This document shows positions 24,551 through 56,481 of a stretch of 64,000 nucleotides of DNA, piece after piece; positions within the stretch are counted from its first letter, which is position 1; every line of letters starts with the position of its first letter. This DNA is from Bryopsis sp. KO-2023 (taxonomy: Eukaryota > Chlorophyta > Ulvophyceae > Bryopsidales > Bryopsidaceae). The stretch is taken from assembly GCA_030272585.1 (NCBI GenBank), contig BSYQ01000003.1, positions 3,038,001-3,102,000 on the forward strand, in the 5' to 3' direction. Position numbers and translations under genes: made by a program. The notes beneath the pieces are model-generated. The model saw only the letters and a program-made list of their open reading frames with translations. It was not told the origin of the DNA and searched no databases.

Positions 24551-26053
24551 ATGCCTGGCGAAACAGTGGTGGGTCCGTCGGGAGTAAACCGACTTGCCAA
24601 ACATCATGGCTCCAGACGGCTGGTTCGTCGCCAGCCGAAGCAAATTTTCGCTGCTGATAGAAGCTACGGAGCTGGCGGGAGGGATCTCAACGGGAATTCA
24701 CACAGGAGTGGGGTTGGCAGGGAAATCGCGACGAAAGCCGTGTCGTTTTCTGGGGATGGGGATATCGACCTCGGGCCCTACAAATATGACAGTCGGGAAC
24801 TGAAGGAACTGGCGGATATGATGCCAGACAGACTGGACGCCACCTTGAAACCGAGGTCCAAATTGCTGATGAAACAGTTGCTCGACAAGTATGACCTGGA
24901 CACCTCCACTCTTTTCGAGGATGAAGAGGAAATCGACTTGTCGGAGGCTCCCAAATGGCTGGATTCGAAAAAGGAACCCTCCATGTCTGGCTTCAAGGAG
25001 CCTTTGCCAGAACAGATGGGGTTCCCCCTTCCGCAGGAAGGTGACCTGGCTGGCTGGGATTTTTTCATCACCAATGTGGAGATGGGTTATGAAGCTAAAA
25101 AGGAGCTGCAATTGCAGAGGGTGTTCGATCAGGCATTGAAGCTCCATCACAGTCAGAACTTCAGGGCTAAAAACATCTATGCGGTGTCCATGTGGTATGC
25201 GAAAGTCTTGGAGCAGGTCGAGTTATGGGATAATTACGAGGGTGGGGATCCGTCCCCCATACCTTCGTTCGTTCGGGCGTTGTACATCCTGGAAGAGAGT
25301 TTCGATGATCTCAACGAAAAGCAAATCGAAGTGGATAGGAAAATTGCGGAGAGGTCCGACAAGCTTCAGGAGGTGAGGGGGAGAGGAAGGAGTGGAGTGG
25401 AGTTTGTTAGTAATGATAATGGCCCTCCAATGCAAATTCAACTGTTATGACAATTTCGCAATGAGTATATGTTGGGGTGTGGAAAACCCTCGGGCAAGGT
25501 AGCTTTTAAAAGAGATTTTCCCCCAGAAAATTCCGAAAAGAAATGAAAATACAGTAACAGCCTTGTATAAGAGACTTTATGGTCTCTGTCGTATGGAAAT
25601 CTGATAAAAAAAAAATAAAAAAAGATTAAAAAATAAAAAGATTAAAAGATACATCTATTTCTGCCAAGAATAAGCCGCTTGCATTATGCGTGCACTATTG
25701 AAATTTTTACTCACTCAAGTTTTCGCATGGCTCAGGCAATGTTTTACAACTGGGTGGAAGAAAACCTGGATGTAACCATTGACTTTGCAAGTCCCATCGT
25801 CAAAGATGGATCCATAGCCAAGTCAGACGTGGTGGAGGAGGAGGAAGAAGAATCGACAACTTTGGAAATTGACGATCTCTTGCATGGACTCATTCCGAAT
25901 GCTGAACCCGAAGGAAGGGCTGAGGATGACTACGACGATTTCACAAAAGACCTGCTGGAGGGCGGATCCGGGGACCTCGAATTCAGGGAAACCTCTGCCG
26001 ATTTGACGTTCCAGCTGCCAGATATGAAAGACCCAGAGGAATCACCCACATGA
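24551..26053 (+). CDS. Unidentified protein with acidic C-terminus
   Basis: Two exons, 24551-25372 and 25736-26053, in phase 0, give 379 residues from a clear ATG. I do not recognise the family. The first 70 residues are basic and Ser/Gly/Arg-rich, which could be a targeting peptide. The middle (residues about 80-280) looks globular and helical, with WYAKVLEQVELWDNYEGGD and FVRALYILEESFDDLNEKQI. The second exon begins AMFYNWVEENLDVTIDFASP and runs into a Glu/Asp-rich tail containing EEEEEES. No membrane segment or catalytic motif is evident. Codon use and GC match neighbouring genes, so it is probably a genuine native gene. Confidence 0.72.
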
Positions 26054-26721
26054 GGCAGCTTTTGCTTTTTCTGGCTGGATATATTTGCAGCACCGGGTTC
26101 TTTTGGGGATTGTGCCTCTCTTGTCTTTCGTCCAGTTTTGGAATTGGCTGGTTGGAGAGCAGGTCAGGTTTTTGGTAGACGCAGGACTGGGTGGCCTTGT
26201 GTCAATTCCTTTGTGTGGCGGTTTCGAATGCGATTTTGAAAGAGGATGTAACATTATTTGTGTGCGGGGGGACCTTGAGCTCCCAGCACACAGCTGGTTC
26301 AAGACAGGATGCAAACAAGGGATCCATTGCTTTGGCGGTGGTTCTGAGTTGCGTTTGTGTGCAGCATGACGTCCCCAAACTAAAAACTGATATTCTCCAC
26401 AGTTCCCTCGCTGGCAAAAAATTGACCGCAGATCTGAAAACCAGCACTGGCAGCCTTGCTGGCAATCCTGATTCAACGTCGTGGTTTCGTCTCCATTGCA
26501 CCCCCACCCCCCCACCCTCTGTCACTTGTCCTTGCGGCTGCCTAATCAATCTTCCTCGCCGCCAACCACCTCAACCCACTTTTCAACAACCTCGGAACAG
26601 GCACCAGTTTCTGGCGCGCCTTGGGGACTGTCAAGTTCTGTAACACGGACTGCGCTCTGGCAGCTGCACTGACCCATATGACACACGAAACCCTGGTCGC
26701 TTGGAAGGGAAGATTGCAGTG
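26054..26721. other. Spacer upstream of the giant EF-hand gene
   Basis: It should contain the 3' UTR of the acidic-protein gene and the promoter of the next gene. Both strands show short random ORFs only. Confidence 0.4.
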
Positions 26722-29700
26722 ATGGTGTCCCAGATCCTTCCTGTTCACTCCGTCGAAATGACGGAGAGGGTGGACGACTCTGCCTTGGAAAGCCCCACGC
26801 CGCCGGTGAGCTCTCTTGATCCAGCCTTTCAATAGATCTGGGTCCGATCTTCTACAACTGATCGAGATATCCGTTTCCAACAGGACGAGAAGTCGTCGGC
26901 CGTGCCGAAGTGGTCCACGATCAGGAACAGCGTGGCCCTAACTAGGAAGAAAAAGGTGAGAAACTGCAACATGGATCTTTCCTTGCGGTAGAGAAACTTT
27001 TCCTTCCTTGTAAAGGAGTCTCAAGAGATGGCGGCACACTGCCAAACGAAATGCTGCAGCATCTGTGGTTCTGATAGAAGAGCACTCTCCTTGTTTGTAG
27101 ACCTCTTCGGGACCTTCCTCGGGACGACGCTGTAACCCGACGGGTCCCAGAGCCCAGGCGCTGTTTCAGCTGGCGGTTTTTCTTCTCACCAACTTCGTCG
27201 TGGTATGATGAGAGTTTCTGGCAAAGTGAAACACTACGCATTAAAAAAAACACAAAAAAACAAAGAAAACATTGTGCATAGAGCCCTTGCAACCCGAAGA
27301 CGCACTGTAAAACATCGTTCAGAGTAACATTGTTCAGTCGGAGTGAGCATCAACGGCATTTTCTGATAACGCGCATCAAACTTGTGGCGTTTTCGTTCAT
27401 TTGTGTTTCAGGTGTTTTTCCTCTTCGTATATCCGCAAATCACCGAGTATCAATACTTGAAGAGCTACGACGAGGACGTACGTTTCAGAGACGTGTCTGA
27501 GCTCACAAAATGAACACAGCAATACTATTCAAAAAGCTATTAAAAGTATCACTAAAAAACGAATCTTATTTATGAAATTTTCGATAGCTAAGGAGGTCTC
27601 TAAAGAAGCCCCTGAACATGGGGGTTTTACATTGTTTTTGTTTAACGAACTGCATGTCGGCTGGGTCGTCAGCAACTCTCCTTTTCAGCCATAACGGGTA
27701 TAATTGTTCCATAGTTCGACAATTCTTGCTTTAAGTTCTGTAATCGGCTGTTCTGTAAGTCCACAACTGAGGGCAGGCACTTCCAGTACCAGCGCAGATA
27801 CCAATATTATATACACTTCGCCATGACACTTTTTCCCGGTTTCCCACAGGAAGAGGCGGCGTTTCACCAGTTCACACCAATCAGCATACCAGTAGAGGTT
27901 GATGATGATGTCGATGGCGCTCCCCACGATCACGATTATTTGCTCCAATACAATGCTCTGGTGTATATTCCGGAGGATGTCAAATGGAATCCTTACACAA
28001 TGGGATGGAACCTTCAGGTGACCTCACCGTTTCTTTTCGAGGAAGCAATATTTGCTTGATGGGGTCGTCCCTTGCAGTTGATGGGCCTGAATTGTGTAAG
28101 CATAGTTCAATAGTTCTCTGGAGTAGGAGCTAGTCGCTGACTAAAGTGGGTTGGTTTTCACCCAGGACATCATGGATCTGCCTCGAGCAAGGGATGTGCC
28201 AGATGCATACTGGGAACCTGGAACTGGTAAAAGAATGGTTCAAAACTACACTGCGTGCTTTGAAAGCTGCCTGGACGGTCTCGGAAGGCCAAAGGATATG
28301 TATGATAGTGGAGGAAATCCGACGAGGTATGCTGAAACAGGAACACATTGGCTTCTGGCGTACTTAGGTTGCACATTGTCCCCTTTTATCTTTTAGCTAG
28401 ATCATCGTGGATTATGTTTTGTTCTCCACAAGCTTAGGATAGGTTCAGAGTGTTCAATGGCCTTTTGCTAGCTTTATTTCTGGCACGCTTAAAAACTAAG
28501 GAGCTGATGCCTGTCGAAGGGACTTCACTCTGGAACCATATGGACAAGCAAATGACTATTACCTGAATCGCGAGGAGTTCCTGGAATTTGTCGACTACGA
28601 CTTCTACCATGCCTTTTCATCCAATGACGACAAGGGACATGCTCACAAGGACGCTTATGGTGGCTTTGGAGTGAGTGGTCTCCAGGGAAACTTGAACCTT
28701 ACGAGCCCAACATCGTCTTCCTATGTCTGCAACCTTGGCACACAAAGAAGGATAACGACGGCCATCAGAATTCAGACCCACGGTACAGATGTTGAACTCT
28801 ATAAGCACAGGGAGAAATCCCACAGGAGTGATATCTAGAATGCGGTAGGAGGACTGCTTCCAGCCTTTTTTGATTCGTAAGCCCTAAGGTTCTATTCTGT
28901 TCGTTTTCAGGGTGCCATGTTCAAGTATCCTCGACAGAAGGAGATCACTATCGTTTGTTCGTCAAACAACGCCACAGAAAAAGAGTCAGAGCTTCCGTTC
29001 GAAAGGTTGCCAAAAAGGATGTGGTTTCGGGGTGTAGAACTCAACACGTCCTGATCGAAGCCTTCAATCCAACATGCAGAAGAGTGCAAGTCCCAGGCAA
29101 GGGGGGATATTTTCATCCTGATCACTTGCAGACCCAATCTCACTGATACTCACACACAAACTGACGCCGTTTTTCCTTTCTCCAGGAACGGAAGTCGCTT
29201 GCGAACGTGAGTGCTCGGTCGTTCTGTTCAAAGGTCATCGAGCTCGTCGAGTCCCCATCACTGTCGAACCGTTGGGCAACCTAACGAATCCTCTCCCCAC
29301 GTTTCGCATTGACGATCAGTATCTTGTGCTGGATGCTCTCGGCCGAACAGATGACTTTGATCTTTACATAAAGGGGGGGTCGATGGATGTGGATCTATCT
29401 AACGCAAGAATAAAAAGCCTGGGTGTTGGGCTGAAATATGGAACTGTCAGTCTTGACCACCTCAGGCATGACTACGCATATGTATCAGTCGAGGCAGATG
29501 ATATCGCTCTTCAGGACGACAGAAACTATGAACTTCAGTAAGGAATAAAAACACAATTTTTCGAGTCGCCTCTGCCTCTCAGGGTGCCTGTTCGAAGAGC
29601 TTCGCTACGCTTGAGTGTACAGCTCTACATTGATCTGTTTTTTGGTTCAGATACCGAAGTGCAGCCAATCTGGTATGTGCAACCGCACCAATCGTCGAGG

Positions 29701-32700
29701 ATATCCCAAGAGAAGTCATACCATGCGAAATGCAACCCCCCGCAAATCCTGAACTGGATGCACACAAGTTTTACGACGACAAGGCTGACGGATATATTGA
29801 TCGAGCGGAGTTTTTGGATGGAATGGAGCGACTTGGTCTCACAAACGAAACCGACTCGCTCGATATTGAAGATTCGGAGATGGAGCAGCTCATCAATCAC
29901 GTGTTTAGCGACTCCCAGCCTGATGCAGCAGTTCAGGAGCTCACATACGAGCTGTTCGAACAGCAGCTCAATCTTTTGATGCTACCGCTCACGACACTGT
30001 ATGACTCCGAAGCCAAGGAAGATTGTTTACAATTCTGTTCTGGAGGAATATCGTCAGTCGAATGCCTGCAGAACTGCACTTGGCACTGTGGGGGTGGGAG
30101 CATCGGAATCACAGAGCCGGTGTTTGGGTCGTGTGATATATCACAGGTAGGCAAACAAGCACTGCAAATAACAGATTGGCTTGTGGTCGGTACAACACAA
30201 GAATCGACCTTAGGTTGGTCTGCGTCTCCAGGGTTGCACGCCTAGCTGCGGAAGTCCAGATACCTCCATAACTGGCGAGCGAATCCCAAGCTTGGGTGGG
30301 GTCAATTATCATCTCTACGACTTGGATCCACCTGATGGCGTTATAACTGTGGAGGAAATGAGGCAGGCCCTCCTGAAACTGTATGGCAACTGTACATATA
30401 TCATAGAGCCTTATGAGAAGGACTACGTGACATGCAAATATGTTGGCTCGGGTCAGTATGATTTAGGTGGCGGAAGGGATAGAAGAGAATGCACAAGGTA
30501 ACTGCGTTTGTCATCTCTACCTATCTTATCTTACTAGCTCAATTTTTGCAGCACCGCAGCCATTTTGTTGTGGCAAAAGTCTGACACTCTTCGCTAAATC
30601 GATGAAATATTTTCCCTGCAATTTTTTTTGCATATTCTTTATTCACCACAGATATAGCGATGCTGATCGATCTGCTGATGGATACCAAGCCTATGACAAA
30701 AATGAACATGACTGGAGGATAAACAATCCAAATATGCCAGATGGAACCAACGAAACTCTGTCAATGTACGGAGGCCAACCAAGGGAGTGCCGCCCCTTTC
30801 CTGACTATGACCCGAGATTAAACGGCAGGCAGGTATGAAATGCACGGCTGTACAGTTGAATGCTGTATGAAAGCATGTTCTTATTAATGGTGTGTTTTGC
30901 AGTTTGACCCCAACGCCAATCCTACAGACTGTCCAGAGTGCTTCTTACCAGATGGCAATTTGGTGCCCTCACATTACTTCAACAGGTCAACTTGGGATCT
31001 CCAGAGCTACAATGATGTACTGACTTCTTTGCGAAGGGTTTTCACTTACGACCTTTTCGGATACAATTTTCCATACTTCAATATCTCGGATGACGACCAG
31101 TATCGCCATTTCGCTTCCAAAATATTTTCAAGAACCATCGTTGAGAATCGTGTGGAATATGCAACATTCAACTCAAATCTTCAAGCTGTGGGGAGGGTGG
31201 CCGCCATTGGGGAGAATTTCTACCTGTTCAATCCCTGGTGTTTTCGGGGGCTGTTCTTGAAGTTGGGCCCCAGTGACTACACGAACCCGGATGCACAGAC
31301 TGTTGCAGATGAGTCCTCCATAAAGTATTTGAGTGCGACCAATACAATAGAGAATACAAACATGCCAGGCTTCAGAATAAGTTCCAGCTCAACAGCGCTG
31401 AATCCATGTCCAGAAGACTGGGGTACCGGGGCTCAAGGAAGCACCCAATTCTCCTACTTTCCATGGGCAACAGAGTCATCAGGAAGAAAATGGGGGAAGG
31501 CCCTTCCAATGTGGTGTCTGGATGAATCTTGGCCGAATGGGGGGGTCGACGGGGTTTATCCATACGATCAGTCAAAATATGGAAGTATGGCTGGAAAGGA
31601 GATACCCCCAGGATGCGAACCGATGGTCTGTAAGCCCCTGATGCAAGCGGACGTTATCGAGGGATCCATACATGCCCAGGTACCTTATTCTCTGAACTCG
31701 ACCCTTCTCGACACGTTTTCTAGCTTTCTTGTGGCGTTGTTCCGAGATATGACAGCCTTCGACCTCAGGTGTTGCCGTTCAAATTCGATCCATTCAATGT
31801 TTCTGGGAGCTACCATACCATGATAGAGAACTGCAAGACCTCAGACGGGAGCAGCAGATGCTTTTTGAAGGTAAGAAATGCAGGCGGCGGCAGCTGGAAG
31901 TATCTTGAAGATATGAATTCATCGTTTCTCAGAGCTTTCTCCCTGTGCAGGGTTATGATGCCCACTTGGAGGCCAGGTTTCGCGGCGTGGACGAAGATAA
32001 GCTTGAAAGTATCAAACACAACTGGGTCGATGAATCACAAGCAGCCGACGATTCAGTGGTTGTGTTGGACGTGGCCGGTTTTGGAGTTCCAAACTTCAAG
32101 AAGTGGTTCTGGACGTCCAGGGATGTTTACATGCAGCTTGAGCCAGCGTGGCTTAATGTGTTTTCTTTGGGGGTTCTTGATCCCAGGATGGTGGTTGCCG
32201 ATGTGCGGATGACTCCCGGGTAAGCTTCACAAAAGCATAAATTTGTATCTCCCCCTCAAAAAAAAGAACGAAACCGTGGAGTGCTGTCCACCAGGAAAAG
32301 CTTCAGCAATACTCTGATATTACACCGCAGCAAAGCTTCAATTAAACTACGTACAGTCGATTGCGCTTCTCAGAAGTAATACTATGGTGTTCACGATAGG
32401 ATGTGCGATCCAAAGTACGGTGCCATCGAAAAAATTGACTGGAGGCAGAACTCGACAGATGGAGCTGTGCAAACTCTGCGAACAAGAAGAGAAACTACGA
32501 TTCACGAACTTTTGCAAGACATGATCAGGCCAGACTTTGAGCCGGAGCTTCCTGGCAGCTTTTACTTGAAACAGGTAAAGCTATCCTTATGGGTTCCGAG
32601 CCAGTAAGCTTTCCTTTTTTCGCCGCACGAATCCATTCTGAAAAATAGATTTGTGGCTGTTCAATTCCCAGATTTGGAGGACTGGGTACCATAATGAAGA

Positions 32701-35700
32701 GCTTATGTTCGATCCTATCACTTACAATCCGCTAACGGACACGGATCCTGGTTTTATCGATGGAAGGGGTGTCCGCGTTGGAGTGGGCCCATCATTTCGA
32801 CACAAGAGAGTCTGTGTTGACTCTCAACCTTGCAATGCAGTTTACGCCATCTACTCAGACAATTGTCGTATTGAAAGAGAGCTGTTTCTGAACACGAGTT
32901 CTGGAGAGTATGAACTCACGCCATGCGTGAATGAATACGGAGCTTCAGCTTATTTGGACCCAGTGCTCCAGGTACGGAATTCACTCTGTTCGAGTGCACA
33001 GGACCAGAAGATCCATTGTGTGCTGAGATATATCCCATGATTTGCTTTTGGATAGTACAGGGTGATGGACCGGTGATGAACGAATCTGATTTCAACAACC
33101 AATTTCCACGCACGCTGGACCAATACACTTGGGAAGAGGTGAAACGAATGAGGGGGGACCAGGTGCTGAGAAGGAATCGATACGTAAAGCTCATTCATCA
33201 CTCGCACGCAAACGCAACCACCTATTTCTATGACAAGAAAAGGGTGGAGCTTGGGGATGGAGGGGAGCTCAACTTCGTCGACGCCAACAACGAGATGTTT
33301 CAGAATGTCGCACTGGTGGGACACAACCCAAACCACACAAAATGAATCAAAAATGCACAGATGTATCGACACAAAGCTGTTCTCACAGTTATAATATGAG
33401 TTTCTTTAGTGAAGGACAAATGTTGATATTTGAAACTGACAAGGTGCGAATTTGCAAAGGTGTTGTCGCTTGTCCTGAGCATGATGATAGCTGGGACCAT
33501 AGGAACCGCTGTGATGCTATCTTTGACGCTGCTTGCATTGAAGGCTCTTGGAAGATACAAGCGAGAGCAGAAAAACTTGAAAAAAATCGACAAAGGGAAA
33601 AGGAAGGATCGATTTGATGCATTGGTTGAGCTTGTTGCTGTCGATCACAGGAAGGCAGTCAGAAAGGCGGCCCTGGTAATTATCAATAAATAAATCAATC
33701 AATCATTACAACTCACTAAAAGAGAGCCATCCCCCTCCATGATGCTGGAACAAATACGAAAAGGAAAAATCCATAGTTGTCTGCTTGCCTCATGTAGCAC
33801 CCATCAACAGTGATCATTCCTGAAACGAGACGGCTAAGAATGTACATAGGATATGAACGGGGCGGAGTTGAGACGAAAAATTTGTTTATTGTTATCAGGA
33901 CGATGGTAACGACCCTCTGACGCTTTCTGCAATTGATCTAGCCATTCCTAAAGATAAAAAGCAAGATCTTCTAGACTTCGCAAAGCAAAAATGGGATCCG
34001 CACAGCGACGTCAGTGAGTGGAACGTTGAGGAAATGAAGTTCGAATGGGATAGGTATGTTTTATCCACCCAAAATAATAGGCTTAATTATTATTATTATT
34101 AATACTAATTGGCTGGTCTTTGTTCCCTGTGCATAAGTCCTATCTTCATTTGTGTAGGTTTTGTGCAACAGGAGAGGTACCCGAACTTTCCCATGGCGGC
34201 CAAGTCGTGAAAGAGAATTTCTCCAAGTTGACCGCAATTGCACTTCGGCCCATTAGCCCTGCTTTCGCGAAAGGCAAGAATGACTCAGACGAGGAAGGCA
34301 AGGGACTGCTCACCAACACGCTGAAAAACGCAGCGGAGATTCAAAGTAGAATCGACCAGATGGAGGAGAGCAACTCGAGAATGCACTACATAAAGCTTTA
34401 TCTTGCGGCATTAACGAGGTACACACAACTTGCCGTATGGAAGTCAGGACACCTTTGTACAAGTTTATTGCCTGTTGTTTATTGATTTTATGGGGATTTC
34501 TGGGCTTGTGTTGCAGAAAGTTCAAGACAATTTTGGACCTGCTCCTCCAAGCAGATGTGCCATCTCCATTCGATGTGATTGAGGTAGCGATCATCGATCA
34601 ATGCCGCCGCCGCCTCATCAACAGTCTTCGGACCTTTGTGAAGGAGAAATGCCTCCAGGTTCGGTCACTGCCTTGTGGGGATTGTATCAGGGCATATTGA
34701 TCCTTTCCAACTGCAGCTTGACATGTAGATCAATCAATCAATCAATGATTACATGTTGCCTGGCATGTAGATATGCATTGAGACATGTATGAGTTATTGC
34801 TTTTCGCGCGCTCCACAGGACCAGCCTCTGACACAGGATTTACAAGTTCGACTTGGGGGCACACTGGATGACCTCGGAGACTTCGAGGAGGGTAAAGAAG
34901 TGATTCGTCTTGGGATTGGCTCAGACGTTGGTGTTGGGAAGTCCATTTTTGGGAAGATGATCAGGTTGGTAGCAAATATCTCATGGATTAATCCACGACG
35001 ACTTTTCTTTAAATTCTTTTCTGTGCATTTAAATTGGTTGAGTAGATTAAAAAACTACAAATATATTAACAATGAATGTTTTATCTCAGATACAAGGTGG
35101 CTTGGGTTAAGATATGGTGTCAAAAGAAAAGATGCTCAGTCCACGGCATCGAAGCTGATCTGCTCGTGGTCAATATACATGAAGGCCCGAGGACATTCAC
35201 AAACCCCACAACCCCGCTGGAACCGTGGGAAGAAGGTCTTGAGGATCCCCTGCTTGGCCATGAACGTCTTTTCACCCTCCCAGGGCCCGAAGCTCTTGGA
35301 GGGGGGGTAAAGCACAACTACGTTATATCTGCCGAATGGGGGACAAGAACTATTCAAATCAACACCCAAGGGAACTTGGATTTGAAGGCCTTGGGACCAA
35401 CTGTCCAGTTCAAGACGGTTCTGCGCAACTTTTGCCCCGCTTATGAAAAATTCTGCATGAATTGGTCCCTCCTTCAAAAGGATGTATTGAAATCGGAGGG
35501 CACACTCAAGGTTAGTTCAATTCTGCCCAATTTTTTTCCCAGATCTCGTTTGGTGCCCCCATCCTCATCGCTAAGCATTTCTCTAAATAAGGCAATGCTT
35601 TTTTCTCCACCCCAGTCACTAGGAATACATGCAACCAAGAGAATCGTCACCTCGTTGAAAGGTTTGAAACTGAAAACGGATGACGATCGCGCAAAAGAGA

Positions 35701-38664
35701 AACGGGCAGATAAACAGCTGACGTTCAAGAAACGAGATGATGCCTTCTACTCCTCTTCGCTGCACGAGTCACAGAATCAAGCCGTTCTCAATTTTACAAT
35801 TCCAGTTGGGATGGAGGTATGCAATGGCATTTTTCTTAAGGAATCTGTTTACACTTGAGAGGGCCGCTGGGGCTGTACATCTGGGGCCTGTTTCAAGTCT
35901 CAACTAATGAGCTGTTCATTATTCAACAGGATTCTCCTTGCCATTTTCCCTGTTCATAACTCATGAACTTGCCCTCTATTGTAGGACGGAAGTATCAGAA
36001 TCGATACGCAGAAACTCCAAGACAGCATTCAAGGTTGTCTCTCAGCTTCTCTTCTTCCGGGAGGTGTGCCCGAAAGGCCCAAGGAGGAAAAAAAAGATAC
36101 AAGCCCATCAAGCACAGAGCGTGCTACTGGCGACTCTGGCCAACAAGGATCCCAGACAGCGCGAAGGCTGCCGCCAATCGAAGAAACAATCTATGTACGT
36201 CGACTTGAAAAAAAAAAGCAAATCAACCAACAATACTTGCGCAAAGACATCTTTGTATGTGGCACTTCGTGGTGTTCTGCGTGGTGCGTCGACATAGCCA
36301 TCCGATTTCGAGCTGTCTCAAGCTTTCCTACTCTTTGTTTTCAGGTAAACACAGAAAAGGGGGTGTTTTCAAGTGGAATGAAGACGGCTATGGTCGAAGC
36401 AGGCCGGTCAAGTTTCCGTCGTATAACCAGTGATGAAGATGGAGGGCTACAGCATTGCTTGTCCCGTGTCTCTGAAGTGTCAGACGACGAGGAGTCGTCC
36501 GACGAAGAAGATAACTCTCAGTCGCTGGAGCTAATTCAATCGCAAACTTTGCTGGCGCAGTTCATTCGGTCACAGTATACAGTATCCGGAAATTATACAC
36601 GCGATACAGAAGAGTATGAAGTGTTCAAGGTGGGTTTGCCGAATTCTCGCTCAGCCTATATTATATCAAATATTGCACCACAGAAAAACAAGCTTTTATC
36701 CTTCTCTGCAGGCCAGATACAAGCTTTGGTGCAAGCGAATGCGCACGTCTCCTGAAGGAATTGACACAGGGGAGTTTTTCGACTACGGAATAATATACAG
36801 CGAGGATGCTTTCCATGATATGTTTGGTGTCACCGTCAATGAGCGAGATCTGGCAGTGAACCCGATGGGCTCCAACCAGACGGTTTGGTACCTGATGCGA
36901 GTTCTCAGCGTCTGGCTGCACATCTTCTTCATTTGGCTCCCTGTCTACCCTCTCATCCATGTCGCATTCCACCAGCAAAAGTTTTACTCAAGAACGACAG
37001 CAATTCAGCCCCAGCTGACGCTAGATGACCTCCGGTCCAACCCCGACGACTTCGGGGAGTATGGAATAACACCGACGAACAAAATTGTGCTGGCGATATG
37101 CACCACGTGGCTCGTGTTCTGCCACCTGAAGATGGTCGTATATTACATCGGAATAGCACGTATGTATGCACAAATGAGCCCCCATTGCGCTGACAGAAGC
37201 CGTTTTTCACAGAATTAAGAGATGAACTCTCTTTCAGTTGTGGTGCAGTTCCCAGGCTTCGCAACAACCGTGTGAGGGGCTTGCTGAAGAGCATCTTTTG
37301 GGTCTTCTTTTGCCTGGTTTTGGCGATGCTCATCTCATACGTTCTGTTCGTGTTTTCTTGGCTCATATTGGGGGCCGTCATTCGGCCCCAAGCGTTTCTG
37401 CCGTACTGCGCGGCGGTCGTCACCCTTTTCATGCATGCAAAAGCCACGGGATCCAGACTCCTGCTCTCCTTCGATAGGTATAAAGCAAGAGTTGCAGCAG
37501 TCGTCGCAGCCGCATTTGCTGCGAAGATCGTTGCAACTTTGGCAATGGGTAAAAAGAAAAAAAAGAAGCAGGATGAGAAGGGAAATGGTGAGTGTGGATG
37601 TCCGTGTGCAAACCGCAGAGCTCGTTCATCTGAACTGGGTGTTAGTTGGTTATGGCATTTCTTCGTCTCCGCTTTCAGAACCTGGTCCCAGCGAGGCGAC
37701 TTCCCTGGAGCCCTACCCAATATTCAAACTGTATTCTGGTGATGACGATGACCTGAGCTATGACGAATTCAGCGCTTTGCTCGACCGTTTCGACATAGAT
37801 ATGATCGAGGACAAACGAAGAATGTTCTATGCAAAGGTGATGCAGATGTAATCTCAATCCTCCTTCCACTCAAACTGTTTATTTGGTAGCTCAAATTACC
37901 CATCCAACCCGTTCCCAGGTCTCAACTCAACACACGCACAAAAGTTTTCAAGACCAATGTAATTGATGTTTGTTTGTTTGTTTGTTCAAGACCAATGCCA
38001 TTCGGTTCTTTGTATGTGGCTTTCACAGATTTTCCGGTTTCAATTGGGGCGGGAATGGCTTGCAAAAAGATTTCTGTATATAGATAACACAAAAGAAGGT
38101 TTGTTTCTTTTTGCTCTGAAGCATTCGCGCGGATGTTAAAAGTATTGCTATGAACCCCACAGGTCGATGAGGATGGGAGTGGGCAGATCGGCTACGTTGA
38201 ATTCGAAAAGGCCTGGAACCAAATCCAAAGAGAGATCATCAAGACCAGGATGCGGGAGGCAGGCATCACAAAAGGACGCGTCGCTTGTTTGTTTATTTAC
38301 TCCATGTTCCTTCTCTTGCTGGTGTTTGCTTTTATATTCGTGGGTGTCACAGCTTTCGTTGGAGAGGGCGCCTTCGGTGCCGTCATCAACTCCTCCCTCA
38401 CTGCTGGTAAGCACGTTTGGATGAAATTTCAACCCTGCAGCGTTTTACGTTTCTTTTCGAAGAAGAATTTGCTCTGGAACGCCAGAACACGCCCCTCCCC
38501 CAAGGAAATCTGGGGAAGTTTTTATGTGAAAAGCCAGCTTAAATACCACGGATTTTTTCTGCACAGGTGCTGGAGTTGTCATGAACGCTGGGAAAGAGAG
38601 CGATGAAGACGAGGATGTCGATCTAGGGATTGAGAAGGTTGAGGAGAATGAGGATGATGATTGA
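26722..38664 (+). CDS. Giant multi-pass membrane protein with EF-hands, unknown family
   Basis: At least 32 exons chain in consistent phase from the ATG at 26722 to the stop at 38664, for about 2,470 residues. The largest exon is 30903-31679. One junction, between 33324 and 33444, is unresolved, and exon 28911-29031 has an alternative frame. Visible in order: a short cytosolic start and possible membrane segment (VFFLFVYPQITEY); a large Cys- and sequon-rich part (NCT, NRS, NIS, NST, NAT), probably extracellular or lumenal; a canonical EF-hand loop DDKADGYIDRAEF and a looser DLDPPDGVITVEE; a membrane segment (MMIAGTIGTAVMLSLTLLAL); a soluble stretch of roughly 750 residues; four or more membrane segments between about 36880 and 37540; a second canonical EF loop DEDGSGQIGYVEF; a last membrane segment (YSMFLLLLVFAFIFVGV); and an acidic tail. 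A Ca2+-responsive surface or channel-like protein is plausible but unproven. Confidence 0.75.
34728..34762. repeat. Dispersed short repeat, copy 1
   Basis: An (ATCA)n-type run followed by ATGATTACATGTTGCCTG lies in an intron of the giant gene. A second copy with the same 18-base tail is at 38844-38874, and the ATCA part alone recurs at 33693-33710. Confidence 0.6.
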
Positions 38665-40087
38665 TGGAATTTTGGCATTGGGATTAGTTAGTGGGGTTTG
38701 TCGGTTTGCTTTAGGAAGACCGATTTCCGATTTTGGGCTATTCCAGCAATTTTTTTTTAATATTTTGTTTTTACAAGGACTGTGGTGCTGAGGTGGCAGA
38801 AATGCTTACGGAAAATTTTCACTGTAACAAGTACGTACCACCCCAATCAATCAATCGATGATTACATGTTGCCTGAGGAGGCACTCTGCTCCTACAGCAA
38901 CCCAATACCAGACAATCACTTCATCAAAAAAAAATATGCATATAATGGCGAAGTCACCAATCAGTGATCATGATTGATCAGAACCAACTTCTCATTCTTG
39001 CACATGATGTTGGAATTTTCCCCACAGATACATGATTGGGGGGGGGGCGCCAGTGTGATATATGTTTTTCCAAGGGCGGTGGAATATCACTACAGACCGT
39101 CTTGCCCTCTCCATATTTCGAACATTCGTTGCCAGCTGAGTTGATCTATCTTCATTTATCACCTCAGATACATTGACTTTTGTCGATTCCTGGTAAATGT
39201 TTTGTTCAGGTTGATAAGGAATTTTACAGAGTTTTCCAAACAGGATTTTACAAGATCCTGCTCAATTCCATGCCCCTTTTTTGTGTCTGTGCAAAAGAAA
39301 ACGACCAGTGACAGTAACAGTGCTGGAGGTAATGGTGGTTCATGAAAAAAACAAAAATGAGAGAGCCCAATTGAACTTGAAACATTGAATATCGCCACAT
39401 TTGGTAAGGATGTACACTTCGCAATACTTAGTAGGTCTTTCTTCTTCTTTTTGATTTTCATAATTTAACTTTTTTTAAATCGGGGTGCCGCCTTGCTTGA
39501 AGGTGAGTTGATTCCCTAGTTTTTCCAATTCAATTTGTTTGCTTCTCTTTTTTCTACAATTATTTTCGTGAGTCAAATTTCTTTTTTTTTTATAGGTTTG
39601 GGTCGGGGTGAGTGGAGTGGAGTGGAATTTTCTGGGAGCTCAAAAAACAAATTCTATTTAATCAAAAGTATTATTTTGTGAAGAACAACAAGAAGGGAAC
39701 AGTGGTGGGAGTCTTTGGACCAATCAATACAACTTGTGCTCTTTGGGTGGTGATGAGTGTAAAACTCCCCGCCAAAACTAGCCGATATCTCCACAACTCC
39801 TATTTCTATTCCCTCATTCATAATCTCGCCTACGTCATTAAGCAGTGTTACATTGGGGTTCAATAACAAAAGCGCTGTGATTTGTGCAACAAGGATGGTG
39901 CCTTCAATCCTCTTTTGACAGTATTCCAGAAATGCAAAGACCATCCCCCAAAGCCCTTACATAGAATTGATTAGAACATCCAGAACTCCACACGAACCTA
40001 CAGGAATCGAGTCCATGCCCAATTCTTCGCTAAAAAAAGAGACATTAAACCCCTTCAAAAAAAAAAAAAAACCTTGAAGCCCTCTGA
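38665..40087. other. Convergent intergenic region, 1.4 kb
   Basis: Between the giant gene and BMS1. It carries one copy of a short dispersed repeat (38844-38874) and a G-run near 39038-39048. No gene is supported. Confidence 0.4.
38844..38874. repeat. Dispersed short repeat, copy 2
   Basis: Same orientation and same ATGATTACATGTTGCCTG tail as the copy at 34728-34762, located just downstream of the giant gene. Confidence 0.6.
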
Positions 40088-43000
40088 TCAAGATTCGGCC
40101 TCGGCACGCTTTCTTTTCCTGACTTGCTGTCCTTTGTATCGGTGCAATCGCATTTCCTGCACCCCAGAACACCATATTGAGATCAAAACACAGCAATCAA
40201 CTGCTCGAAATTGAAAAAAACCCTTAGTAGTCCTTGCAAATAGACATGAAATTCAGACCCAATCCTATGTGCCCTTCACTTTTTCTTTTTCACTTTTTTT
40301 TAGAACACAAAACCACCAGTGCACATATTGCAAGCTTCCTGTAAAACTTCTGCTCTGGACCTCCTGATACGATATTTTTTGAAAATATATATATGTGATA
40401 TGATATTTATATTGAATTGCACTGCAATCTTCATATGCATATCTTGAAAAAAAGAATTGTGCAGGGAGGACTTGTACCCAAATCTGTTCTGTCCGTTTTT
40501 TTCCTTCTTTTCGAGGAAACCTGAAAAATGTAAAACAAAACAAAACAACCACACTCTGTTACCTTGTTGTATTCTTCCCTCCATTTGGCCTCCTCCTTCT
40601 TCTTCCGCTCGAAAACTTGACGCCGCTTCTCGTTCAATTCCTTTCTCTTCCGGTTCTTGTCATTGCGAATCGTTCTCAACTGAGTGAGAAGATTGGCCAT
40701 CTGCTCACCCCCCCCCAACAAAAATAAAAATAAATCAAAACGAAAACAAACCCATATTTACACCTCGGCACTCGGTTAATCATCGTTAGATCATTCATAT
40801 GAGCAGCAGACGAGCTATATACAAAAAACAATACGCCTCAGAAAATCGACACATCTCTCAGCCTGCCTAGGATTCATACTGAACAAAAATAACTATTTTG
40901 CTTGAAAGTCGAACTGCTCTAATCCAACTTATATCCGCTGAAAAAAAGCATGGTTATACAAAAACTTGATGCTTGCATAACACCCCTTCTCAGATGGAAT
41001 ATCCTCTGTAGGTCACCGAGTTCGTTCCTTTTTTTTATTTCTTTAACGCACCTTCTTTTCGTGGGGTTCTCTGATGACCACGTTTCTCCTTTCGGCCTTC
41101 TTCTGGTCCTTGCTTTTGCTTTTCAGGGTGGGTTTGCTGGAAATCGGAAGATCGGCGATCAGGTTCTTTGGAATGTGCATGGGCAGCCATTTCCTCGCGG
41201 CACGTTGAATGGGTCGATACTCAGAATCTGCTATTTTGGGAGCTCCAATTCCTCGTTCTTGCCGGAGCTCCATCACCGTGCGCATTCTTTTCCAAGAAGG
41301 TTGATCAGATTGGTGTTCGACGCTCTTCGACCCCTTTGTGGATGCAACCGACAGAGGAACCAGCGAATCCCTGAGTTATCGGAGGGAAAAAACAAAAAGT
41401 CAAAAGCGAAATATTTCTGAAAAAGAGAAGAAAGAAGGAGTTAAAATCAAACACTTCTGGAAAAAACAGGCATAAAAAGATGTGTTTTCGGAGGGGAACT
41501 AAAAAGGATAAGCGAAAACCAAAACATTTCTGAAAAAGACAAAGAGGAAGGAGTTAAAACCAAACATTTCTGGAAAAACAGGCATAAAAAGAAGTGCAAG
41601 GGATGCATCGTTGATACTCATACAACAAGCTGCCTTGCCGTTTTTCTTTCTATCGAAAAATGTTGCAGAACGAACCTGTAATAACCCAACCCACGTCGCC
41701 CTGTTTTGAAACAGTATCCAGGCCTGGAGCCTTCGAAAGCGGGTGCTGCAACGAATTCAGGTAGTTCATCTCCTTCTTTGTCTGGCATTTCAGCATCTGC
41801 CAAACGCATGACACAGTTTTTTTAAACGCTGCTGGGAAACCACTTGCCGAAACCAAACATTAACACAAAAAAAACCCTAGAGATCCTCGACATTTGGCCA
41901 GGAAAAAAAAGTCGAAAAACAACCCCCCGGTAAGACGAGGATGAAATTTTACCCCATCTCTGTACATCATAGTCCCCAATCCTCTGGAAAGGTCGCTCGT
42001 TTCGACCAACCAATCGAACCCAATTGCACAGCCTCAATACAAATATCCCTTTCCTTGCAAAAAAACAAACAAACATGGAGCTCCCCTGTCTTACCTTCTC
42101 CTCCCTTTTCCTCCTGTTCCGAATCCTCCGCCTCGGCATCCTTGGCCCTCCTCCTCACGAAAGCCCGGTCGTTCTTTTCAGGTTTAAACAGCATATCAGT
42201 GACCACGTTGCAGAACCTAGGGATCTCCACCGTCGCCCAAGATCTCAAAAACACGATGTCGCTTTTGATAACCCTGTCCTCAAACGTTGCTCTGAAGGTG
42301 CCCTTTGGAGCGCCGAGTTGTCCTGAATGAATTCCCCCACATCCACACAACATCCTCAAAATGAAAATTCAGAAAAAAAAACGCGGAACCACTTCAGATA
42401 TCCACCCACATTAAAAAAAATTAAATGAAAAACATTAAAAAACTTATTGATATAATAATAATTATAATAATTATGATTATATCTCAATAATATATATACA
42501 TATATGAGATGCAGCACATTTGGAAAGCTTTGATGATGGCCATGTGTTGAAACACTATTGGTAAGAATTATAAAAAAAAAATCAAGAATTTCAAAATATT
42601 ATACCGAGCACAGAATATAATCCTAATGATCAAACATCAACGAACTTTTCTCGAAACAGATTTACTTTCACGCCGATAGAAACACAAAACCCAACAGGTC
42701 ATGGAGATGCACCCCACAAAAAAACACACATAGAATAGCTTCATCGTTTCATGATTTCAATTTCTGGCACTGACCATCGCGTACGGCCTTCTTGATGGTT
42801 CCACGAATTCCGCTGACTGTTCTTATCGATGCACCCTCGAATCTGGAAACTTCGATGGGCGAATTGAACATCCCCGAAACGAAAGCTGTGTTTTTCTGAA
42901 CCTTGAAGGGATGCCCCAGAAGCTTCAACTTTTTAACGATCCGGAAATTGGCCTCGATCTCCACGATCGTCCCTGTTGCACTGATCCGCCAGCTCTCCAC

Positions 43001-46000
43001 GTTCGATGATAAATTCTGAATGGCCACGAAGCCGCTGTTTGCTGGAGAGATGGGACCTGATGTGTTGAATTATACCAGTGAAAAAATAAATAAAAAGAGT
43101 GAGAATGTGTGTCAAAATGAAACAGTTTGTACAAAATGAAACAGTTTGAATGCATTTGAATGAAGCAGCATCTGATTTTGTCCGCAAGGCCAACGTTCGA
43201 TTGTAATTTCGATTGGGTGTTGCTTGCTAAACGTGGAGAGCGGGAAAACCCACAGAAGATAGCACTCTTTTTTCAAAGACTTTGCCGACCTCGTTTTGCC
43301 TTTTTTTGGGAAGGAAAAGGTTGATCATATCAATGAAATCTCCATATTGGTATTCAGTGCTTTCCAGAAAAAAAAACACAGAAATAGACACTCGCACGCA
43401 TGTCCATTTATGTTTCTGAAGCAATTTTTCATGAAAATGATCCCTACCCCAAACGGCCCCGATACAGTGAGTGTGTTCCGGAGTATATTTCAACATTCGT
43501 ATTCTTCGGTTATGGTCCTCCACTGCATAGATGGGCAAAGACTGGTATCGCCGCCAGCCGAGCGAAAAAATGAGGGGATCTCGAGTTTTCAAAATCTTGG
43601 GGAACCATCGATGCTTCTTGAACCTCAATCGCATGCACCCTTGTCGATCTTCGCCAGGTCCCAGGCCCCCCACCAGAATCGGACGGCTGGTGTCGAAGCA
43701 CTCCACCATTTGATACGGAACCCCTGAATATATAAACCGAGATTTAATAATAAAAAAATAACCAATAAAATATGCAAAAAGAAAAACGCTTCGAATTGCC
43801 ACGACGTCGAAGTTCAAAACAAAACAAAGCAGGTTTTTTGGGGGGGGGAGAAAAAAAATCAAGAAAATCTTCTAAACAAATATAAAATCTTCTAAAAAAA
43901 TATAAAATCTTACAAAATCTTCTTGGGATTTTAGGTTTTCTCACCTTTGATTTTCATTCGAACGTAGGTTCCAGGCTGGAACCCCTCCAGGGCGATTCGT
44001 CTGTGGGAGCTCATGCCATCCAAGGCCTCCCTGGTTCTCATCCACTTTTCGGTCATTTCTTCTTTTACGGCATCGTAGTAGGTCTGCTCCTTTCCCCCCG
44101 ATCGACCCGCACCCTCATCCTCTTCTTGCTCGGACTCCCCCGAGGCTCCGGCACCCCCTCCCCCTTTATCATACTGCCAAACAACAACAACAAGAGAAAA
44201 AAAAACACTTGTCTTTTCCGTAACCACAAGAAATTTACGTGCCGATTGCTGATGCGTCGATTGACTGCCAAATGCGTTGCCTTTAAACCATGTTTTCGAC
44301 TGAAGTCTGCACTGGAGATCGACAGCCCCTCCACTTTCTTGAAGGAAAAACACTTCAGTAAAATTTGCACAGATAATCGCACAGATCTATTTCAGGCTGG
44401 ACCGCATGCAACATGCTACCATCACCAAAAACATACTGTTTCAAAAAAATTCAAAACAAAAAAAAACCTCATAAAACTCATTGATTCCATTTCTGGAGGT
44501 GGGATTCAGGGAAAGCACTGCACCTCATCATCGAACATGGCTTTCCGGGCTCTTTTCTTCTCCCTCCGTTCGTCGGCTTCCACATCCCCTATGGCTTTTC
44601 GAGCAGCATCTATGGCAGCATCGTTTCCTTTGAACACCTCGCCAGTTTCCAAATCTTCGAAATCCCCATAGACGTCGCTCCCACTGCTACCTTCACCGTC
44701 TGAATTGCTGTCTGGTATTTTCCAGATGAGATTTGGGGAAAAACGAAAAAAAACAACAAAAAACACTCTTAGCATCTGTCGCAGATTCTTGTTCGTTTTA
44801 TGCATGCTGTATTGGGATTAGCCGGAAAGTCTCATCTGACCAGCTAATTCACAACATCTATTTTTATTGGGAATTGTCCAAGTATCAACCTCTGAAAATC
44901 GTTGAATACCATGTATTGCTATTTACCCATATTTATATATATCACGTAGAAACGCTGTGGAGGCTCGTATTCTGAACGATGTATGACCAATCATCGAAAA
45001 ACAGTCTACCAAGTAAAAATCTGAAAGGGGAAATTACCGTACCTTCTGGCCTGGTCGAGCTCCTGTGCTTTCCTTCATCCCAGTCCCCCGAAACGAACCT
45101 GTTTTGGAGAGAAGAAGTGGCACCCTCTCCGCTCCACTTAGCAATCACATTAAAAGGAGGAATAACACGAGTCGTATCCACACCTGCAGCAATTTGGTCA
45201 ACATAAAAAACCCAGCCATGTTCAGAAAAAAACACACACACACACTTCAAATCTCTTCATCTCCATACGATGGATAAACCTCTATAAACCTCTCTATATA
45301 TAGAGAGAGGTTTTTGCTTTTTCTCCAGGCTGTCCTTGCTTTTTTCTTTTTTTTTTCCCTTGTTTTTTTTTTCTGAAATGCTTACCGTCACCATCATCAT
45401 CGCCGCTTTCATCGTCCGCGGTGGATTTCTTTCCGTAAATGAATGCTTGCAGGTCTTTGCCTCGATCATCAAACAGCGTTGCAGCTCTGGTGGTCATGTC
45501 TTGCTTCCAAGCCCCAGCTCTCCCCATTTCTACACACAGTTTTTTTTTTTTCCCTTTTGTCAATAGTAGTTGAATAAAATTACAGATTTCAACAGTGAGT
45601 TTTGAAAAGAGACAATATATATATATAGATACAAGAAACATAGGCCGATCAAACATAAAGAGACATGTTTACACAACTTGTCAAAACTCCCTTATTTTGC
45701 TCGATCCAAAATTTCCAAAAGCGCGACAACTCCAGAACACCAGAAAAATGGCCCCCTTCAATTAACAGTTTGCTGCAGGAAGTTACCTTCTTGATAATCC
45801 TCATCATCAGAGGAGGTCGACTCTTCCCCACCATCTTCTTCCATCGGACCCGGCCTTTCCTCGCCAACGTCAGGAAAATTCACCCTCCTTCGTATTCGAC
45901 CGCCAGCATCCACCGTTTCGAAGGCTTTCCCACTGAAATCCTTGCTGCTGCTTTTCCCCTCATTTTTCCCATTGTTGTAGTTCTCCTCTTCAGTCATGAA

Positions 46001-49000
46001 TCGGAACAGGGCATGTTAATTTTCTTGTTACTTTTTGGTTTTGTGTCAATTCACAGGGTGAAGAAAAGTAAAATAAAAAATCTGGCACTTTTCTTTTTTT
46101 CGCATTAATACCACCACCCCGAAAAAAAATAAAACAATTAACCCCCCACACACACAGATTCAGCAACCAAAAACGGTTGTTCAACTTGATTGTTTCCATG
46201 AATTCGTTCTTTTGTATGAGGGCGTTTTGGATGAAAGATAACAGGTTTTATACATCTAATTATAGGTTCGCTCAACAAGGGTCCTCAGACAACCTCGCTC
46301 TAATCTTCATCATAATGAGCTGAAGAATGCTGACTCGGGTTTGCTGTTTTCCTTTCTTTTCTTTTTTCTCAAGTTTCGATTTCCCCCCCCCTGTACCGTT
46401 ATCAGAATCCTCCTCCTCCTCAGAAGAAACTTCTTCGAGCCCATCCATATCGCCAGCAAGGGCAGCCCCATTTTCGAACAGCTTCAGGGACGCCGTGTTC
46501 AATTTTTCGTCGATCGTTCGCTGGGTGTTCTGCAAGTCTTTCACCATCGTTTCCCCCTCCCCGCCCTCTTTCATATCTTCTTTCCGACCCTCACCACCGC
46601 CTGTCGAAAATTGAACCTCGAATCAAAAGACATCACAAGAATCAGCAAGCGGGTCCTTCCGTGAAACCGAAAATCGATTTCCCTCCTGCCCCCCCCCCCC
46701 CCCCCCAAAAAAAAAGCCTGTATTCTTCATGGAAAAAGAAACAATTCTTAATTATTGAAACTAGGATTGATATTTTTCTCTTTCACGTTGGGAATGATGG
46801 CTTTCTGGTGTTGTCTTTTTTTCCTGTATTGATGGGCAGACGAATAACAGAAAGCCATTGTTCGCACCAAGAAAACAGCCACCTCAATTACATTGATTGT
46901 GCAAGTTTTTCCACATGTTCAGATCAACCGTGGAAAAAAGCGAGACTTTGCTTCCCATACATTCCCTTCACAAACAAGCATCGTACTCACACTCTTATGG
47001 AAAACTAGAAAACAAAAATGCTGTTTTCCCCCTCACCTTCCAATCCGGGATATCGATATACACCGCGTCCTTGTCATATATGAACCCTCCGAGATTACTC
47101 ATCGGGGCATACATCACCCTTTCCTTTTCGTTGAGACCTCGTTTTTTGAGCGCTTCAGGAAACGGACAGGGGTCGACCAGCCCGTCGATTTCCTCCAAAG
47201 TATAATCTCCGACTCCAGCCACATGCACTCGGGCATTCAATCGCAGATTGCATCCTCTTAAATATCCGTAAAGAGAAATGTTTCGGTCACACTTTGGATT
47301 TTGACGGACGCTCTCTGGAGGGGTGGTATCCTGGACAAGATTAAAACACAGTTTTGTTGAAAAAAGGAAACCTTTGTTAGTTTTCCCATGCAAAAATTTC
47401 AACGTTCTCCCTCTTTTTTTTAAATTTCTTTAAGGACGTTTTGCGATCACTTTTTACTTGTTCTGGAGGTCGCTAAAATTTAATATACGATATATAGAAC
47501 TGGATATAGAAAAAAAAAATGTATATAGATATCCAGTTCTACAATATACTGTGTCTTTTCTTTTCAGAAATGGCTCGAATTGCTCATTTTTCCGAAACAT
47601 CAGCATTGCCATCTATCTGAGACCATCTACGACTCCAGATCGTGTGGAGCAGGATAGATTGTGTGGAGCAAAAAAAAAATTTCAGAGGAAGCAAAAACCC
47701 ACCTCGAAACGATCCACCACGCTGTAAGGGTGAACCGTCCGCCAAGAGATCGGCCGCATTTTCATCACCGACACGAATCTTGCCAAATTCTTGATTTCGT
47801 GATGCATGTATTTTCGATTTCGAAAACCGCTCAAGTAGAACAGTCGTGCACCGTCGTAAATCTCCGTCCAAAACCTCGACTTGAGTTTTTTTTTAATCTT
47901 TCTCAGCTTGGAGATATCACTGACGGCATCCAGATGAGTCAACACCCCCATCACTTTGGGAAATCCATGCGCCTGCGCAAGAAAAATCGAAACGGTTTGA
48001 TTGCATTGAAAAAATCTCCATTTTCGAAAAAAATGCAAAAAAAAAAAGCTGAAAAATTGAAAAAAACGTTTGATTGCATTGAAAAAAAGCTTACTACTAT
48101 TAGAGGAAAAACAAGATATTAATAAAATAACTGAGCCAATATGCTGCTGTCGATCCAGTTTTCAGTTATTTGTCAATCGTACCGGCGCCCCCTCAATCAC
48201 ATCCAGATGCCTGTTTTGAGTATTTCCTTTCGAACGATAAAAGGAGCAATGCAATGCTAATTCCATTTATAAGTCGATTTTCTTTTTTTTTTTTACCAAC
48301 CTGAAGCAAATTCAGAAACTCGAAGGTCTCCATTTCGAATCCGAAGGAGCCATCCACACACAGCAACACCAGATCTGCGTATTTGGCAGCATCAATCATT
48401 CCATTCAGGTCATGGGGGCACTCAATGAAGGTGAGACGCCGCTTTTTTCCAGCCATCACGGTTATTGGTCCTTGGATGTCGTTCACGATTTGACGGGTGA
48501 AATGTCGCACCAAGCATTTGATCAAGGTGGTTTTTCCCACCTGGATGAAATTAACAAAAAAAAAGAAATTATGGAGAAAACAAATGGAATGGAATACGCC
48601 AAAAAAAAAAGTGTGTGGGGAAGATTTTCGCATCTCTTTGTTTTTTGCATGTAAATGCATGTGATTTTGCTTTTCAATTTTTTGCTTGATGTTGTGGGCA
48701 CATTTAACTTTTTCGACTCAAGGAATTCTTGGACTCATTGCGTACGACTTTATACGTTGAAAAATTAAGAAGAAAAAATAACAATCAGCAGACTGGAAAA
48801 AATAAAACAAGAAGCTAGGAAACCTCACCAGGTTCAAATGAAAAATATGAAATACAGTGATGCCAAATGTTTGGCTGATTTGATCAACAATTTCTTGTGA
48901 AATTGTAAGATAAGATGAGATGAATAAAATGATTCCAAACAGAGGCCATTCAAAACACTACCTTTGGCGGACCCTGCACGAGAACGACATATGGAGGTGG

Positions 49001-53653: not shown

Positions 53654-54221
53654 GTTTTTTTTTTCTTCTATCGAGCGTTACTGGTTCTTCTTCTGCCTTT
53701 CCCCGCTTGCCGATCTCTTTCTGAAGGATCCGCAGAGTGTGCGCGCGAAAATATGCGTCCTCGCCCGAAAAAATAATAACGATCGCTTGCGAGGGAAAGC
53801 GTTGCGTGCTTTGTACTTTTGCACGCGCGCGTTGCAGCGAACGGAAGGTCGAAGGAGGTCGGCAGTTGCTTACGCACATTGCTGAGTGGATATCGCTCCA
53901 CTCGATCAGCGACTATCGATGATGAACACGGCGGCCGATTTCCGATTTCAGCCTGGTCCGAACACTGCACAACCCTCGCTCAATTCCAATATCGGCCGCC
54001 GGGGTTGCGTCAGGAGAGAGGGGAGCACAGAAGGCTAGCGGGAAAAGGAGGAAAAAAAGGTATTGTGGCCTCGTCCATCCGGTTTTCGCGAACATCGTAC
54101 GGCTTTTGGGCAGAGTTCCCGACCGAAGTGCGCGTCAAGAGGAGATAACTGGGACTTCTCTGGTCCTGTTCGGTGTCGTGGCGACGTATTTATGGAGTGC
54201 TGATGTTTGGGTGTTGATCAG
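53654..54221. promoter_or_regulatory. Shared 5' region of CCDC124 and RPL8
   Basis: 568 bases between divergent start codons. A CG-rich alternating tract (gcacgcgcgcg, near 53820) is visible. The RPL8 ATG directly follows an acceptor-like gatcag, so a 5' UTR intron is possible but not shown. Confidence 0.4.

Positions 54222-56481
<2,260 letters not shown>

What the first reader, a model, noticed from the sequence alone, without database searches (positions are those of the whole stretch)
26722..38664. Giant EF-hand multi-pass membrane protein with no recognisable family
About 32 phase-consistent exons encode roughly 2,470 residues. Seen in the sequence: two canonical EF-hand loops far apart (one in a Cys- and sequon-rich ectodomain-like half, one just before the last membrane segment), a central membrane anchor, a soluble region of roughly 750 residues, and a C-terminal cluster of hydrophobic segments. 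I know no family with this order. It could be a lineage-specific Ca2+-responsive surface or channel-like protein. That role is inference.
Basis: partly seen in the sequence, partly recalled or inferred. Interest (0 to 1): 0.75.

Follow-up and report, generated by a model that had tools for sequence, protein, structure and literature searches.

The report
Giant EF-hand-like algal membrane protein
This is a real alga gene, apparently present once, for a very large membrane protein that probably binds calcium on both sides of the membrane, but no library available here recognises it beyond its calcium-binding loops, so what it does is still a guess.

Summary
My final model has 32 exons and 2,473 residues with no internal stop. 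Layout: N-terminal anchor; 1,266 residues enriched in glycosylation sequons (14 against 6.7 expected, P 0.0035); central anchor; about 705 residues rich in Lys and Arg; C-terminal membrane cluster with an EF-hand pair before the last segment. Only the C-terminal loop fits the strict EF-hand pattern; the ectodomain loop is near-canonical. Pfam shows only EF-hands, below curated cut-offs. NCBIfam and PDB (21, 63) add only EF-hand resemblances. No paralogue in the own genome with about 1,490 of 2,473 residues queried; no relative in viral, prokaryote or phage collections for the pieces tried. Single-sequence folds were useless. The host is a plastid-bearing alga, probably Bryopsis (inference). 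No eukaryote collection was available, so 'lineage-specific' is untested. Best reading: a Ca2+-responsive multi-pass membrane glycoprotein; a channel or transporter role is speculative.

The parts
26722..26805 (+). exon 1, start codon (residues 1-28), first ATG after an in-frame stop
26884..26955 (+). exon 2 (29-52), basic N terminus
27101..27202 (+). exon 3 (53-86), first half of TM1
27412..27477 (+). exon 4 (87-108), end of TM1 (74-97)
27850..28017 (+). exon 5 (109-164), ectodomain
28166..28326 (+). exon 6 (165-217), ectodomain
28520..28670 (+). exon 7 (218-268), ectodomain, EF-like motif by eye only
28911..29031 (+). exon 8 (269-308), ectodomain; 3' end less certain
29186..29537 (+). exon 9 (309-425), ectodomain
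29651..30146 (+). exon 10 (426-591), near-canonical EF-hand loop at 468-479, Cys-rich stretch 551-587
   Evidence: Pfam EF-hand_6 E 2.2e-5 on the slice
30232..30497 (+). exon 11 (592-679), ectodomain, degenerate EF-like loop 621-633 by eye
30652..30832 (+). exon 12 (680-740), ectodomain; place of the possible two-gene split
30903..31679 (+). exon 13 (741-999), ectodomain; 3' end set by eye
31769..31870 (+). exon 14 (1000-1033), ectodomain; 5' end set by eye
31951..32219 (+). exon 15 (1034-1122), ectodomain
32400..32574 (+). exon 16 (1123-1181), ectodomain
32672..32971 (+). exon 17 (1182-1281), ectodomain
33061..33315 (+). exon 18 (1282-1366), end of ectodomain
33460..33675 (+). exon 19 (1367-1438), central TM2 (1367-1392) then basic stretch; weak acceptor
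33899..34053 (+). exon 20 (1439-1489), soluble region
34158..34418 (+). exon 21 (1490-1576), soluble region
34517..34658 (+). exon 22 (1577-1624), soluble region
34819..34964 (+). exon 23 (1625-1672), soluble region
35090..35510 (+). exon 24 (1673-1813), soluble region
35616..35816 (+). exon 25 (1814-1880), soluble region
35985..36194 (+). exon 26 (1881-1950), soluble region; added by eye, least certain exon (frame score 1.3 against 1.4 for another frame)
36345..36629 (+). exon 27 (1951-2045), acidic soluble stretch
36712..37159 (+). exon 28 (2046-2194), TM3 (2104-2128) and TM4 (2168-2194)
37249..37587 (+). exon 29 (2195-2307), TM5 (2207-2237), short hydrophobic stretch (2241-2260, by eye), Ala-rich segment (2276-2295), six lysines
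37679..37836 (+). exon 30 (2308-2360), degenerate EF-hand half 2326-2337
   Evidence: Pfam EF-hand_7 pair E 7.7e-5 on the slice
38163..38406 (+). exon 31 (2361-2441), canonical EF-hand loop 2362-2373, last TM (2401-2426)
   Evidence: strict loop pattern
38567..38664 (+). exon 32 (2442-2473) and stop codon, acidic C terminus

Best explanation
A real nuclear gene encodes one EF-hand-bearing, multi-pass membrane glycoprotein of 2,473 residues. Computed here: the gene, its exon chain, hydrophobic segments, sequon enrichment, charge pattern and two EF-hand regions. Inferred topology: N terminus inside, about 1,266 residues outside between TM1 and TM2, about 705 residues inside, then a C-terminal bundle with one EF-hand pair inside just before the last TM; an odd number of crossings, about seven, puts the acidic tail outside. 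Inferred mechanism: Ca2+ outside holds or reports the ectodomain state, and a cytosolic Ca2+ rise acts on the EF-hand pair wired directly to the last TM helix, changing the conformation of the membrane bundle. I put Ca2+ regulation at about 0.6, and transport of an ion or solute through the bundle at about 0.25 (the short hydrophobic stretch 2241-2260 could be re-entrant, which is speculation).
For: Gene finder with the span left out of training, shuffles, reverse strand and frame test; open 32-exon chain; EF-hand matches E 5e-5 to 1.3e-4 on the whole protein and E 2.2e-5 and 7.7e-5 on slices; PDB matches of the C-terminal pair to EF-hand proteins, mostly calpains, best E 0.0019; 14 sequons against 6.7 by shuffle in the ectodomain (P 0.0035), not significantly enriched in the other three parts; K+R 9.0% in the ectodomain against 14.2% in the soluble region (Fisher P 0.0005); positive-inside flanks at TM1, TM2, TM4 and the last TM.
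Against: EF-hand scores are below Pfam's curated cut-offs (23 against 25.4 bits), so Ca2+ binding is not secured. Cys enrichment in the ectodomain is not significant (Fisher P 0.11). TM3's 15-residue flanks point the other way (-1 left, +2 right), and 2276-2295 has positive charge on both sides. No channel or transporter profile matches. Structure predictions of two exons had mean pLDDT 30.5 and 32.1. No transcript evidence was available.
Confidence: 0.5

Rival explanations
1. Two adjacent genes: an N-terminal surface protein ending near 30722 and a second protein starting near 30734 or later.
For: With a low gene-start cost the held-out finder splits there (scores 79.0 and 147.3); put on equal costs the split is only about 6 nats worse than one gene. 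At zero cost it breaks the span into 12 calls.
Against: One gene is preferred at the standard cost. By the coordinates, the second product would begin inside the sequon-rich ectodomain with no signal or membrane segment in front of it.
Confidence: 0.1
2. A distant, diverged member of a known channel, transporter or receptor family whose core is too diverged for the profiles used.
For: About seven crossings with a cytosolic EF-hand pair is a common regulatory plan (general knowledge); a single sequence without an alignment is a weak query.
Against: No such family at E up to 10 for the whole protein nor at E up to 2 on eight slices; the weak hits to DUF2207_C, DUF5693, Tetraspanin, DUF1189 and DUF4199 are far below their cut-offs.
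Confidence: 0.3
3. A structural or adhesive surface protein (wall, matrix or organelle anchoring) in which Ca2+ only stabilises the fold and nothing is transported.
For: Half of the protein is ectodomain with 14 sequons and 33 Cys.
Against: The C-terminal bundle with several membrane segments is more than an anchor needs (inference).
Confidence: 0.25

Closest known systems
EF-hand pair as in calpain penta-EF domains (PDB 1qxp, best E 0.0019)
   Same: Canonical loop whose following helix resembles the calpain helix in the printed alignment; degenerate plus canonical loop pair
   Different: No protease domain in Pfam scans; here the pair leads straight into a membrane helix
EF-hand-regulated membrane channels and oxidases in general (polycystin-2, two-pore channels, NADPH oxidases; recalled, not compared here)
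   Same: Works-like only: cytosolic EF-hand next to membrane helices
   Different: None of their Pfam families was listed for the whole protein or the slices scanned; the ectodomain EF-hand region and the 1,266-residue ectodomain between two anchors differ

Membership tests
EF-hand superfamily (PF00036 and relatives) | 12-residue loop with acidic ligands at 1, 3, 5, 12 | tested here: met
   Strict pattern (recalled from PROSITE) matches at 2362 only; the loop at 468-479 has Lys at position 3 and does not match
EF-hand superfamily (PF00036 and relatives) | Score over the curated Pfam cut-off (a filing threshold, not a structural feature) | tested here: not met
   23.0 against 25.4 bits whole protein; best slice 24.2 against 25 for EF-hand_6; E-values nevertheless 2.2e-5 to 7.7e-5 on slices. 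Called EF-hand-like for this reason
Calpain | Papain-like protease core | tested here: not met
   No peptidase family in whole-protein or slice Pfam scans
Cation channels of the voltage-gated, TRP or polycystin type | Ion-channel transmembrane domain profile | tested here: not met
   No such family at E up to 10 or 2
Cation channels of the voltage-gated, TRP or polycystin type | Ion conduction | not testable with these tools
   needs electrophysiology
Tetraspanin | Tetraspanin profile | tested here: not met
   13.4 bits against cut-off 32.1, over the last helix only

The most novel reading that the evidence does not exclude
The founding, so far single known member of a new family of dual-sided Ca2+ sensors: one EF-hand region outside and one EF-hand pair inside, joined through two anchors and coupled to a membrane bundle that conducts or transports.
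Probability: 0.1. Interest if true: 0.7.

Novelty: new variant of a known kind. Interest (0 to 1): 0.35.

Why it matters
If the host is a Bryopsis-like siphonous alga (inference), its giant single cell must signal over long distances and close wounds, and a Ca2+ sensor of unknown kind in its membranes would be worth having. A gene of this size kept open over 32 exons, with no paralogue found, gives one clear target. As it stands, though, giant proteins without a family are common in algal and protist genomes (general knowledge), and without eukaryote-wide comparison the claim of novelty is weak.

Tried and rejected
First self-training of the gene finder ran away into thousands of false introns because the intron cost was too low; replaced. 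That model joined neighbouring genes into one chain and, over 26060-41500, ran on past 38664; I took the end from the run limited to 26060-39000 and from the held-out run on the same limits, so the stop at 38664 depends partly on that limit. A membrane-anchored calpain was considered because of the PDB hits and rejected for lack of a protease domain. XopAW (17.6 against 120 bits) and conju_CD1108 (9.6 against 100 bits) in NCBIfam are far below cut-off. Weak Pfam hits to DUF4199, DUF3177, GlutR_dimer and Flexi_CP and Cbl_N and Flexi_CP are far below cut-off; the DUF3177 hit came from a wrong frame that I had submitted. A hydropathy peak at 1585-1603 has prolines and charges and is not counted as a membrane segment. 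Rfam and tRNA scans of the window found nothing. I first took the host for the chlorarachniophyte Bigelowiella natans; rejected because the plastid contig is 91,672 bases while PMC4757882 (passages seen) gives about 70 kb for chlorarachniophyte plastids; Amorphochlora has a 214-Mb genome (PMC12730881, abstract seen). Structure prediction of two single exons gave no usable model, so no fold search was run. Paper searches for the protein type listed nothing that I recognised as describing it; I saw only the listings.

Full report
The span 26722-38664 is a real gene. I trained a simple spliced gene finder on 200 kb from 20 other places of the same genome plus the rest of the window, leaving out 26000-39000, and ran it on 26060-39000. 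It returned one plus-strand gene with ends 26722 and 38664, score 218, and nothing on the reverse strand; 20 dinucleotide shuffles scored 0-13.4. The cost settings had been chosen with the window in view. The called frame was the best of three in 31 of 32 exons and the best of six in 29 of 32. The held-out run has 25 of the 32 exons of my final model; the run of the model trained with the window has 29 of 32. I set exons 13 and 14 by eye: the finder had used a 41-base intron, while an 89-base intron (31680-31768) keeps the frame, drops about 30 residues and adds about 13. Exon 26, between 35816 and 36345, is also by eye and is the least certain: its called frame scores 1.3 and another frame 1.4. 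The final chain is 7,422 nt, 2,473 residues, one terminal stop. Over a longer stretch (26060-41500) the finder ran on past 38664 through tiny exons, so the 3' end rests partly on the limit I set.

One gene or two: at a low gene-start cost the held-out finder splits at 30722/30734, at zero cost into 12 calls, and when starts are rewarded into many short ones. Put on equal costs, two genes come to 212.3 against 218.0 for one. That is not decisive. The split falls inside the ectodomain half and would leave the second product without a signal or anchor at its start, so I prefer one gene.

Layout: hydrophobic segments at about 74-97, 1367-1392, 2104-2128, 2168-2194, 2207-2237, 2276-2295 and 2401-2426 (two neighbouring peaks are merged in 2168-2194), and a shorter stretch at 2241-2260 that is by eye and did not pass the threshold. 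A peak at 1585-1603 (1.36) has prolines and charges and is not counted. The part 98-1363 has 14 sequons where shuffles of its own letters give 6.7 (P 0.0035), K+R 9.0% and 33 Cys; 1396-2100 has 5 sequons (2.9 expected, P 0.15), K+R 14.2% and 10 Cys. The K+R difference is significant (P 0.0005), the Cys difference is not (P 0.11). Charge flanks agree with N inside, 98-1363 outside and 1396-2100 inside; TM3 does not fit locally. Between TM5 (ending outside) and the EF-hand pair (behind six lysines, taken as inside) exactly one of 2241-2260 and 2276-2295 should cross; the other may be re-entrant or lie on the membrane. That step is inference.

EF-hands: the strict loop pattern hits only residue 2362; a relaxed one hits 2332 and 2460, which I do not count (patterns recalled). 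Pfam finds EF-hand_1 at 2358-2379, E 5e-5, EF-hand_6 at 465-488, E 1.1e-4, and the pair model at 2329-2377, E 1.3e-4, all below the curated cut-offs; on slices E 2.2e-5 and 7.7e-5. In PDB sequences the C-terminal pair resembles calpain and other EF-hands, best E 0.0019. The N-terminal 1,400 residues match nothing in PDB below E 0.6.

No family, no relative found: Pfam whole protein at E up to 10; eight slices at E up to 2, which leave out 767-999 and 1901-1950 (741-999 alone was scanned, no family at E up to 1); NCBIfam. As a check that the gene finder and library work here, 9 of 10 neighbouring predicted proteins had a Pfam family over its cut-off. I picked those 10 from the 16 models, partly because they looked familiar, and trimmed one, so the 9 of 10 flatters. 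Own-genome searches with about 1,490 of the 2,473 residues found only the gene itself (at E up to 0.01; 19, 20, 34, 35 at E up to 10); residues 1-309, 681-739, 1000-1033, 1409-1673, 1814-2045, 2308-2360 and 2445-2473 were not queried. Viral contigs (two pieces), prokaryote genomes (one piece) and phages (one piece) gave no relative; reach close relatives only and may leave out records near the host. These collections are not of eukaryotes, so absence there says little about lineage specificity.

Structure: two single exons (259 and 140 residues) folded without an alignment gave mean pLDDT 30.5 and 32.1. Nothing can be concluded.

Host: the assembly has 91.1 Mb in 28 contigs, a contig of 91,672 bases with a bacterial-type SSU and a RuBisCO large-chain match, a contig of 356,152 bases with another bacterial-type SSU, and eukaryotic rDNA on C24. 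This is a plastid-bearing alga. I recall organelle lengths near these for Bryopsis sp. KO-2023. PMC11852573 (passages, and the Discussion) names that strain and gives 408,555 bp for the mitochondrial and 139,745 bp for the chloroplast genome of B. hypnoides: the first shows that Bryopsis mitochondrial genomes can be this large, the second is larger than the contig here. I did not see the KO-2023 lengths in print. Bryopsis is therefore an inference, about 0.75.

How it probably works: a membrane glycoprotein whose cytosolic EF-hand pair, wired directly to the last membrane helix, passes Ca2+ changes to the membrane bundle, while the ectodomain EF-hand region binds Ca2+ outside. Ca2+ regulation I rate at 0.6, transport at 0.25; both are inference. 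Novelty is limited to the order of parts; interest 0.35 because giant proteins without a family are common in such genomes and the decisive comparison could not be made.

Noticed in passing
window 24551-26053 (+): Predicted two-exon gene of 379 aa just upstream; acidic stretches in the C-terminal third; the only one of the 10 neighbours scanned without a Pfam family at E 1e-5.
   Followed up: partly
window 1994-4379 (+): JAB/MPN ubiquitin protease-like gene (PF01398); AMSH-like by recall.
   Followed up: partly
window, within 7825-11825 (+): SOUL heme-binding protein (PF04832) with a signal-peptide-like start by eye.
   Followed up: partly
window 39957-49530 (-): Two predicted pieces; the 46272-49530 piece has the AARP2CN domain and looks like the start of BMS1 (recalled); the other piece (39957-45997) may be the rest of it, not scanned.
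   Followed up: partly
window 53919-58628 (+): Predicted model holds a ribosomal protein L2 domain and a Ras-like GTPase; probably two genes joined by the finder.
   Followed up: no
G000 contig C24 (L044-L046): Three SSU rRNA matches about 12.4 kb apart on a 35,781-base contig; the one scanned (L044) is eukaryotic with 5.8S beside it.
   Followed up: no
L043 3750-4081 (contig C27): A second, partial bacterial-type SSU match, cut by the locus end, close to the full one on the 356-kb contig; split rRNA or another copy.
   Followed up: no
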